Shown here: positions 49,299-50,912 of the stretch, one piece after another | Layout of the letters: the number at the start of each line of letters is the position of its first letter | Numbering within the stretch: position 1 is the first letter of the stretch | Source of the DNA: Miniimonas arenae | Lineage (GTDB): Bacteria > Actinomycetota > Actinomycetes > Actinomycetales > Beutenbergiaceae | Length of the DNA stretch: 64,000 bases | Assembly: GCF_006351005.1 (NCBI RefSeq) | Contig: NZ_VENP01000011.1 | Span: 1 to 64,000 of the forward strand | Direction: 5' to 3' | Program-made: the position numbers and the translations under genes | The notes under the pieces: generated by a model | Seen by the model: the letters and a program-made list of their open reading frames with translations, nothing else | Told to the model about the DNA's origin: nothing | Database searches by the model: none

Positions 49299-50558
49299 AT
49301 GAGCCTGGACAGCACCACCCGCGCCGACCTCCCCACCGGGACGACCGGACGCACGATCGTCGTCCTCGAGCCCGGTGCCCGCGGCGAGGGCGAGGGGCTT
49401 CTGCGGGACGTCACCGGCATCCGCGTGCAGCGCGTGGGCGATGCGCCGCCGGGCTCCGTCCCGGGCGAGGACGCCTACCTCGACCAGCTCGGCATCGCGA
49501 TCCTCGCGGCGGATCCCGACCAGGTCAGCGCCCTGGGCGCGGCCGCCGCCGGAACCGAGCTCCCCGTGCGCTCCTGCGAGCCAGAGGTCTACGTCCGTGC
49601 GCTGGGCCAGCACACCGCCGCGGTCTCGGCCGACGAGACCTACCTCGCGGAGGAGCCGGGCACCGACCCGGCCACGCTCTGGGCGGACTCGCCGAACGCG
49701 ACGTGGGGCATCCAGGCCGTGCACGCCGCGCCGCCCGCCGGAAGCCGCGCGCCCTGGGCCGGCTCCGGGATCACGGTCGCGGTGCTGGACACCGGAGTCG
49801 ATCTCGGCCACCCCGACCTGGCCGGGGTCGTCGTCGCCCACCAGAGCTTCGTCGACGGCGAGGAGGTGCACGACGGGCTGGGCCACGGCACGCACGTGGC
49901 GGGCACGATCGCCGGCGCGCACACGCCGCCGGGCGGGCAGCGCCGGTTCTCGGTCGCCCCCTCGGCGCGCCTCGCCGTCGGCAAGGTGCTCTCGAACGAG
50001 GGGTCGGGGTCCTCGGGCGGCGTGCTGGCGGGCATCAACTGGGCCGTCTCGCTCGGAGCGCCGGTCATCTCGATGTCGCTCGGCTCGGCCGTCGCCAAGG
50101 GCGAGACCTACCTGCAGTACTACGAGGCCGCCGCCCAGGCCGCGCTCGACGCGGGCTGCCTCATCGTCGCGGCCGCGGGCAACGAGGGGTACATGCCGGT
50201 CGGCTCACCCGCCAACTGCCCGAGCGTGATGGCCGTGGCCGCGCTCGACCGGGCGCTGCTGCGGGCGTCCTTCTCGTGCGTCGCGCTCAACGGCGACGGC
50301 GGCGAGGTGAACATCGCCGCGCCGGGGGTCGACGTCTACTCCTCCTACCCGGTGGCTCGGGGGTCCTACGCCTACCTCTCGGGCACGAGCATGGCGACGC
50401 CGCACGTGTCCGGGGTCGCCGCCGTGTACGCGCGGGCCACCGGGCTGCGCGGGCGCGAGCTGTGGGCGCGGGTGGTCGAGACCGCGCGGGGGACCGGGCA
50501 GGACGCGATGCTCGTCGGCGCCGGCTGCGCCACGGTGCCCACCCGGCCGCCGGCCTGA
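49299..50558 (+). CDS. Subtilisin-like serine peptidase (S8) without signal peptide
   Basis: 419 residues. Catalytic residues: Asp164 in VAVLDTGVD, His196 in GHGTHVAGT, Ser364 in SGTSMATPHVSG, with oxyanion Asn in AAAGNEG. The first ~150 residues include a propeptide-like region (GRTIVVLEPGARGEGEGLLRDVTGI...) but no hydrophobic signal sequence or twin-Arg, so the enzyme appears cytosolic or is exported by an unusual route. No C-terminal membrane anchor (as in mycosins) is present. ATG 49299 has GAGGAG close upstream. The next gene encodes a small protein resembling the S8 propeptide/I9 inhibitor fold, suggesting a protease-inhibitor pair. Confidence 0.92.
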   Translation: MSLDSTTRADLPTGTTGRTIVVLEPGARGEGEGLLRDVTGIRVQRVGDAPPGSVPGEDAYLDQLGIAILAADPDQVSALGAAAAGTELPVRSCEPEVYVRALGQHTAAVSADETYLAEEPGTDPATLWADSPNATWGIQAVHAAPPAGSRAPWAGSGITVAVLDTGVDLGHPDLAGVVVAHQSFVDGEEVHDGLGHGTHVAGTIAGAHTPPGGQRRFSVAPSARLAVGKVLSNEGSGSSGGVLAGINWAVSLGAPVISMSLGSAVAKGETYLQYYEAAAQAALDAGCLIVAAAGNEGYMPVGSPANCPSVMAVAALDRALLRASFSCVALNGDGGEVNIAAPGVDVYSSYPVARGSYAYLSGTSMATPHVSGVAAVYARATGLRGRELWARVVETARGTGQDAMLVGAGCATVPTRPPA

Positions 50559-50624
50559 GGATCGGGCGCGGCCCGGGGGTGAGCAGTCGTCGACGGCAGG
50601 CCGACCCGGGGTGAGAATGGAGGC

Positions 50625-50912
50625 ATGTCCGGCTCCACGCCGCTGCACCGTCGCACCCACCACGCCCCCGAGCGCCCCGAGCGCCCCGAGCGCCAGGCCG
50701 TCGTGGTGACGATCACCGGTCGCCCGCTGAGCACGACGCTGCCCGCGCTCGAGGAGTGCGGGCTCGCCGTCACCTCGGTGCTCGATCAGCTCGGGATCGT
50801 GCTGGGGCGAGCCGACACCCCGACCCGCGAACGGCTGGACCTGCTTCCGGGCGTGCACGTCGAGGCCGAGCAGGCGGTGCAGCTGCCACCGCCGGACTCG
50901 CTCCTGCAGTAG
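50625..50912 (+). CDS. Small I9/propeptide-inhibitor-like protein
   Basis: 95 residues. After a ~23-residue His/Pro/Arg/Glu tail comes AVVVTITGRPLSTTLPALEECGLAV...VLDQLGIVLGRADT...RLDLLPGVHVEAEQAVQLPPPDS. The strand-helix-strand pattern and the closing GVxVEAEQAVQLPPP resemble the I9 subtilisin propeptide, whose last strand ends in GVxxVExdxxVxL. It is encoded just after an S8 peptidase, in the same direction, so a standalone inhibitor or folding aid is a good guess. GAGAAT lies 6 nt before the ATG, suggesting a leaderless start. The I9 link is by pattern only; structure prediction would settle it. Confidence 0.7.
   Translation: MSGSTPLHRRTHHAPERPERPERQAVVVTITGRPLSTTLPALEECGLAVTSVLDQLGIVLGRADTPTRERLDLLPGVHVEAEQAVQLPPPDSLLQ

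What the first reader, a model, noticed from the sequence alone, without database searches (positions are those of the whole stretch)
49299..50912. Cytosolic-looking subtilase paired with a separate I9-like inhibitor/propeptide gene
The S8 peptidase keeps all catalytic residues (Asp164, His196, Ser364) but has no signal peptide, Tat motif or membrane anchor. Directly downstream, in the same direction, a 95-aa protein shows the spacing and closing strand (GVxVEAEQAVQL) of the I9 propeptide/inhibitor fold. Subtilase propeptides are normally fused. A free-standing, separately promoted inhibitor beside an intracellular subtilase suggests a controlled protease system, for instance stress- or phage-triggered activation.
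Basis: partly seen in the sequence, partly recalled or inferred. Interest (0 to 1): 0.6.

Follow-up and report, generated by a model that had tools for sequence, protein, structure and literature searches.

The report
Cytosolic subtilase with paired propeptide-like inhibitor
Next to the gene for a protein-cutting enzyme that appears to stay inside the cell lies a small unnamed gene whose product folds like the removable 'safety catch' of such enzymes, and the same two-gene pair recurs in at least seven bacterial phyla, so it is probably a widespread and so far unnamed way to keep a dangerous enzyme in check.

Summary
In detail: a complete S8 peptidase (49299-50558) without a visible signal peptide is followed on the same strand by a 95-aa gene (50625-50912). 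AlphaFold2 gives the small protein a confident beta-alpha-beta-beta-alpha-beta fold (pLDDT 97-98 in the core). Its 15 best structural matches are all subtilisin-type propeptides or pro-enzymes (Z 8.0-9.7). A profile built only from free-standing homologues finds, in whole genomes, either free-standing genes beside this type of S8 or the fused pro-regions of other subtilases.

The pairing is conserved: of S8 loci fetched by the protease alone, 22 of 24 in this clade have the small gene downstream, against 0 of 56 other S8 loci. The clade is one supported branch spanning seven or more phyla and some plasmids. In the annotated records read, the small gene is only 'hypothetical protein'.

'Separately promoted' and 'phage-triggered' are unsupported. 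Best explanation: a trans-acting, propeptide-like inhibitor of the mature protease (inhibition inferred, about 0.7). Nearest precedents are ASP/ORF2, YIB2/POIA1 and IPI/Isp1. New variant of a known kind.

The parts
49299..50558 (+). S8 (subtilisin-like) serine peptidase, 419 aa, no visible signal peptide
   Evidence: PF00082 7.5e-44; PDB relatives Carlsberg, Savinase and others; clade of 39 S8 rows, support 98/93
49341..49604 (+). fused I9-like N-terminal domain (residues ~15-102) of the peptidase
   Evidence: strand-helix order in the model; alignment from residue 17 with unprocessed pro-subtilisins, Z 42.9; hhalign with the small family E 2.4e-4 for a single comparison. Caveat: its alignment held misplaced rows
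49761..50513 (+). S8 catalytic domain: Asp164 (49788-49790), His196 (49884-49886), Asn295, Ser364 (50388-50390)
   Evidence: invariant columns
50559..50624 (+). 66-nt spacer between the genes; no promoter- or terminator-like site found
50625..50912 (+). free-standing I9-like (propeptide-like) protein, 95 aa
   Evidence: AlphaFold2 pLDDT 91; subtilisin propeptides are the best structural matches; homologues beside S8 genes
50691..50888 (+). beta-alpha-beta-beta-alpha-beta core, residues 23-88, superposed on the subtilisin propeptide 7-77
50880..50909 (+). C-terminal tail QLPPPDSLLQ, at the place of the propeptide tail that enters the active site; PP in the last 14 residues in 28 of 40 homologues, PPx(2-4)Q end in 17 of 40
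   Evidence: structural register

Best explanation
This is a two-gene protease-control module. The subtilase appears to be made in the cytosol with its own fused I9-like prodomain, which probably helps it fold and keeps it off until it cuts itself free. The downstream gene supplies a second I9-fold protein in trans. It most likely binds the same face of the mature catalytic domain, with its C-terminal tail (QLPPPDSLLQ here) in the active-site cleft, so that any enzyme that has lost its prodomain stays inhibited until the small protein is removed, diluted or degraded. The Pro-Pro in the tail would make it a poor substrate. Shown here: the fold and its kinship to subtilase pro-regions, the fused N-domain, the gene order and its conservation across phyla. 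Inferred: binding, inhibition, the role of the tail, and any trigger.
For: Fold: mean pLDDT 91, core 97-98. The top 15 VIA-align rows are all subtilisin-type propeptides or pro-enzymes, Z 8.0-9.7, rmsd 1.5-2.2, model residues 23-88 on propeptide 7-77; Foldseek ranks propeptides first, though at weak E-values (8e-3). Sequence: a profile of free-standing members alone, run over 346 whole genomes, hit 26 long ORFs, and in 23 the hit lies before an S8 catalytic domain in the same ORF. Pairing, found by S8: 22/24 in the clade against 0/56 other S8; plasmids 6/6. Found by small gene: all free-standing hits at order, phylum and class level lie beside an S8 of the clade, apart from a few chance hits inside unrelated long ORFs. 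Tree: the S8s with a partner form one branch, 98/93, 36 of 39 rows. Coupling: 4-nt overlaps in six pairs. Precedent: propeptides inhibit in trans, and the C-terminal residues of YIB2, POIA1 and propeptides set potency (PMC10580911).
Against: No complex was modelled: the single-chain stand-in could only be read through structural alignment, and its alignment had ten small-protein rows misplaced on the N-domain. No coordinates could be inspected. A Leu-to-Pro change at the C-terminus of the Tk-subtilisin propeptide weakened binding (cited in PMC10580911), so a Pro-rich tail could mean weak inhibition. 12 of 40 homologues lack Pro-Pro near the C-terminus. Three clade members have no partner, among them the closest relative of the window protease (L045:5716-7098). 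The small protein could be a foldase instead.
Confidence: 0.7

Rival explanations
1. External foldase: the small protein is a trans-acting chaperone needed to fold the protease, like ORF2 of the Aeromonas sobria protease, and inhibits only in passing.
For: The ASP/ORF2 pair has the same gene order: ORF2 is encoded just downstream, its C-terminus lies at the catalytic site, IC50 84 nM (PMC5638518). ORF2 (3wqb_B) is among the Foldseek hits of the small protein (E 0.086).
Against: ASP has no propeptide of its own, whereas this protease keeps a fused I9-like domain that superposes with the catalytic domain on unprocessed pro-subtilisins. Three clade members keep an intact protease without a partner.
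Confidence: 0.2
2. The small protein has a common ferredoxin-like fold and an unrelated job (regulator, adaptor or substrate); its neighbourhood with S8 genes reflects a shared pathway, not direct contact.
For: NapD, ACT and NikR domains also score Z 6-7.7; no Pfam I9 match for the window protein, and only two of 22 members touch PF05922, weakly.
Against: Propeptides stand above all other folds (Z 8-9.7), and the sequence profile singles out S8 pro-regions. The partner is tied to one S8 clade and to no other S8.
Confidence: 0.07
3. Toxin-antitoxin-like or abortive-infection use: the small protein is a labile antidote, and its loss under stress or phage attack frees a suicidal protease. (This can be true together with the inhibitor reading.)
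For: Small downstream partner of a dangerous enzyme, 4-nt overlaps, carriage on plasmids, distant phyla mixed within the tree, TPR-CHAT and sigma genes near two copies.
Against: Within the window the neighbours are transporters and TrkA-like genes. No conserved defence neighbourhood, no specific PADLOC match. Nothing shows lability or toxicity.
Confidence: 0.15

Closest known systems
Aeromonas sobria serine protease ASP and its external chaperone ORF2 (PMC5638518)
   Same: Subtilase gene followed directly by a gene whose product acts as a trans-encoded propeptide, with its C-terminus at the catalytic centre; ORF2 is a weak structural match.
   Different: ASP is secreted, kexin-like (S8B) and lacks a propeptide; the pair was reported in five genera only (PMC5638518). 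Here the protease looks cytosolic, keeps its own I9-like domain, and the pair spans at least seven phyla.
Free-standing I9 inhibitors: yeast proteinase B inhibitor 2 (YIB2) and Pleurotus POIA1 (PMC10580911; PDB 1v5i)
   Same: Single I9-fold protein acting in trans, C-terminal residues important for inhibition.
   Different: Fungal; as far as I recall not encoded beside the target protease; the small protein here has no significant Pfam I9 match.
Bacillus subtilis Isp1 and its intracellular inhibitor IPI (PMC3901451)
   Same: Intracellular subtilisin plus a separate protein inhibitor.
   Different: IPI has an Ig-like fold and its gene is in no species near a subtilisin gene; Isp1 has only an 18-residue propeptide.
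Fused I9 propeptides of secreted subtilases (subtilisin BPN', subtilisin E, Tk-subtilisin)
   Same: Same fold, superposed at Z 8-9.7, detectable sequence kinship to pro-regions.
   Different: Fused in cis and removed after maturation; here a separate gene accompanies a protease that also has a fused copy.

Membership tests
Peptidase family S8 (subtilases) | PF00082 above its cut-off and a complete Asp-His-Ser triad | tested here: met
   150.6 bits against a cut-off of 21.8; Asp164, His196, Ser364, Asn295 invariant
Inhibitor family I9 (small protein) | propeptide beta-alpha-beta-beta-alpha-beta fold | tested here: met
   pLDDT 91; 15 best rows all subtilisin-type propeptides or pro-enzymes
Inhibitor family I9 (small protein) | significant match to the Pfam I9 profile PF05922 | tested here: not met
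   no Pfam match for the window protein; two of 22 members at best E 0.064. I therefore call it I9-like and not a Pfam I9 member
Inhibitor family I9 (small protein) | sequence kinship to subtilase pro-regions | tested here: met
   23 of 26 long-ORF hits of the family profile lie before an S8 domain
Inhibitor family I9 (small protein) | inhibits a subtilase | not testable with these tools
   needs an enzyme assay
ASP/ORF2-type protease and external chaperone | protease lacks its own propeptide | tested here: not met
   fused I9-like domain, residues 15-102
ASP/ORF2-type protease and external chaperone | propeptide-like partner encoded directly downstream | tested here: met
IPI/BsuPI inhibitors (PF12690) | Ig-like all-beta fold and PF12690 match | tested here: not met
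   alpha/beta fold; no Pfam match
Known anti-phage systems (PADLOC) | specific match of both genes to a defence model | tested here: not met
   only generic subtilase and partial IetS matches for the protease, none for the small protein

The most novel reading that the evidence does not exclude
A cross-phylum cytosolic 'double-lock' protease: the cis prodomain makes the enzyme and the trans copy holds it off, and signal-dependent loss of the trans copy releases proteolysis inside the cell, as a stress or immunity switch.
Probability: 0.2. Interest if true: 0.75.

Novelty: new variant of a known kind. Interest (0 to 1): 0.5.

Why it matters
A strict, widespread partner of an apparently intracellular subtilase has gone without a name, and no Pfam or NCBIfam model matches it. 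Naming the pair gives a testable answer to how bacteria tolerate a general protease in the cytosol, and it offers many natural trans-acting propeptides for study of subtilase folding and inhibition. The pair is small and easy to assay.

Tried and rejected
Single-protein genome-contig search with the window small protein found nothing, and the alignment A2 had no stretch conserved enough; I switched to S8-based fetching plus whole-genome profile searches. Hits G012, G180, L157, L170 and L173 are treated as chance matches inside long unrelated ORFs. Phage carriage was tested and not found. A conserved third gene was sought by all-against-all comparison and not found; CNNM-type transporter genes sit between the two genes in two genomes, and TPR-CHAT plus sigma genes occur near two copies. 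Profile comparison of the small family with fused pro-regions (E 4e-13) is not independent, because those pro-regions were picked by the same profile; it is not used as proof. The N-domain gave no significant PDB sequence hit, and the small family only sub-threshold ones, among them several propeptides. The single-chain stand-in for the complex (window:49299-50909 read with TGA as Trp) was submitted before I saw that ten rows had been aligned to the N-domain, so I draw only the N-domain and catalytic-domain arrangement from it, with that caveat. Literature searches found no description of this pair, but only open-licence papers were searchable.

Full report
What is in the window. A 419-aa S8 peptidase (49299-50558) and a 95-aa protein (50625-50912) lie on the same strand, 66 nt apart. 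The peptidase has a full catalytic set and no visible secretion signal. Its upstream neighbour is an Nramp-type transporter, and downstream on the other strand is an amino-acid permease, so the setting is ordinary.

The small protein is propeptide-like. No Pfam or NCBIfam model matches it. With 21 homologues, AlphaFold2 gives beta-alpha-beta-beta-alpha-beta at mean pLDDT 91 and 97-98 in the core. The 15 best rows of the structural comparison are all subtilisin-type propeptides or pro-enzymes (Z 8.0-9.7, rmsd 1.5-2.2); other ferredoxin-like folds follow at Z 7.7 or less. Foldseek also ranks propeptides first, though with weak E-values. Independent sequence support: a profile made only of free-standing members, searched over 346 whole genomes in six frames, gave four free-standing genes (the window among them), each with an S8 in the locus, and 26 hits in long ORFs, of which 23 lie before an S8 catalytic domain in the same ORF.

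The pair is conserved. Fetching loci by the protease alone gave 80 S8 loci. Of the 24 in the window's clade, 22 have the small gene next downstream (21 by profile; Chryseobacterium by reading the sequence). None of the other 56 has one. Six plasmid records with a clade S8 (Methylobacterium, Streptomyces, Rhizobium, Palleronia, Hymenobacter, Deinococcus) all have it, annotated 'hypothetical protein'. In the window's own family, the five genomes with the clade S8 are the same five that hold the small gene, apart from one chance hit. Searches that start from the small gene reach the same S8 clade. In two order-level genomes a CNNM-type gene stretch lies between the two genes. A tree of 88 S8 catalytic domains puts all the paired ones on one branch (98/93), 36 of 39 rows, with distant phyla interleaved, which suggests horizontal transfer. 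Some family and order rows in that tree were chosen by their small gene; the S8-first counts above are the unbiased ones.

The protease has its own fused I9-like domain. Residues 15-102 show the same order of strands and helices; the model aligns from residue 17 to 418 with unprocessed pro-subtilisin E (344 residues, Z 42.9, rmsd 3.2), beyond the ~266 residues of the catalytic domain; and profile comparison with the small family is in register (E 2.4e-4 as a single comparison). The clade members aligned here share this domain. So the small protein is a second copy supplied in trans, not a replacement. Caveat: the alignment for that model had ten small-protein rows placed on the N-domain.

Mechanism. 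In subtilisin propeptides the C-terminal tail lies in the active-site cleft like a product, and its residues set potency (PMC10580911). The small protein superposes through residue 88, its tail reads QLPPPDSLLQ, and 28 of 40 homologues have Pro-Pro within the last 14 residues. I infer that it binds the mature protease in trans and is hard to cleave. A Leu-to-Pro change in the Tk propeptide weakened binding (cited in PMC10580911), so potency is uncertain. Overlaps of 4 nt in six pairs point to co-translation; there is no sign of a separate promoter, though that scan is weak for actinobacteria.

Comparison. ASP/ORF2 has the same gene order, but its protease lacks a propeptide and the pair was reported in five genera (PMC5638518). 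IPI inhibits intracellular Isp1, but has an Ig-like fold and is not encoded beside a subtilisin in any genome examined by its authors (PMC3901451). YIB2 and POIA1 are free-standing I9 inhibitors of fungi. The present pair joins features of all three: a new variant of a known kind. A defence role is not excluded and not supported.

Noticed in passing
L045:5716-7098 (G023): Second S8 copy of the clade, the closest relative of the window protease, has no small gene downstream, a Pro-rich C-terminal extension, and a TPR-CHAT protein directly upstream.
   Followed up: partly
L043:8434-9887 and L043:10010-15484 (G006): Second S8 copy in G006 has its N-domain and catalytic domain in different frames (frameshift or sequencing error); a TPR-CHAT gene and a sigma-70-like gene lie nearby, as they do near the copies of G023.
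   Followed up: partly
L138:7667-9655 (Streptomyces jietaisiensis plasmid): A trypsin-like (Trypsin_2) protease gene follows the S8/small pair directly.
   Followed up: no
L139:7591-7824 (Rhizobium sp. WL3 plasmid): The small protein starts with GRYLVVVD, like the fused N-domain of clade proteases (TGRYLVLL), which hints that the two I9-like domains are paralogues.
   Followed up: no
L047:5140-7589 and L048:8047-10532: CNNM/CBS/CorC-type transporter genes sit between the S8 and the small gene in two Micrococcales genomes.
   Followed up: no
window 50619-50627: The GGAGG motif before the small gene ends one base before the ATG, an unusually short spacing; the true start may differ, but no other ATG, GTG or TTG is available upstream in frame.
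   Followed up: no
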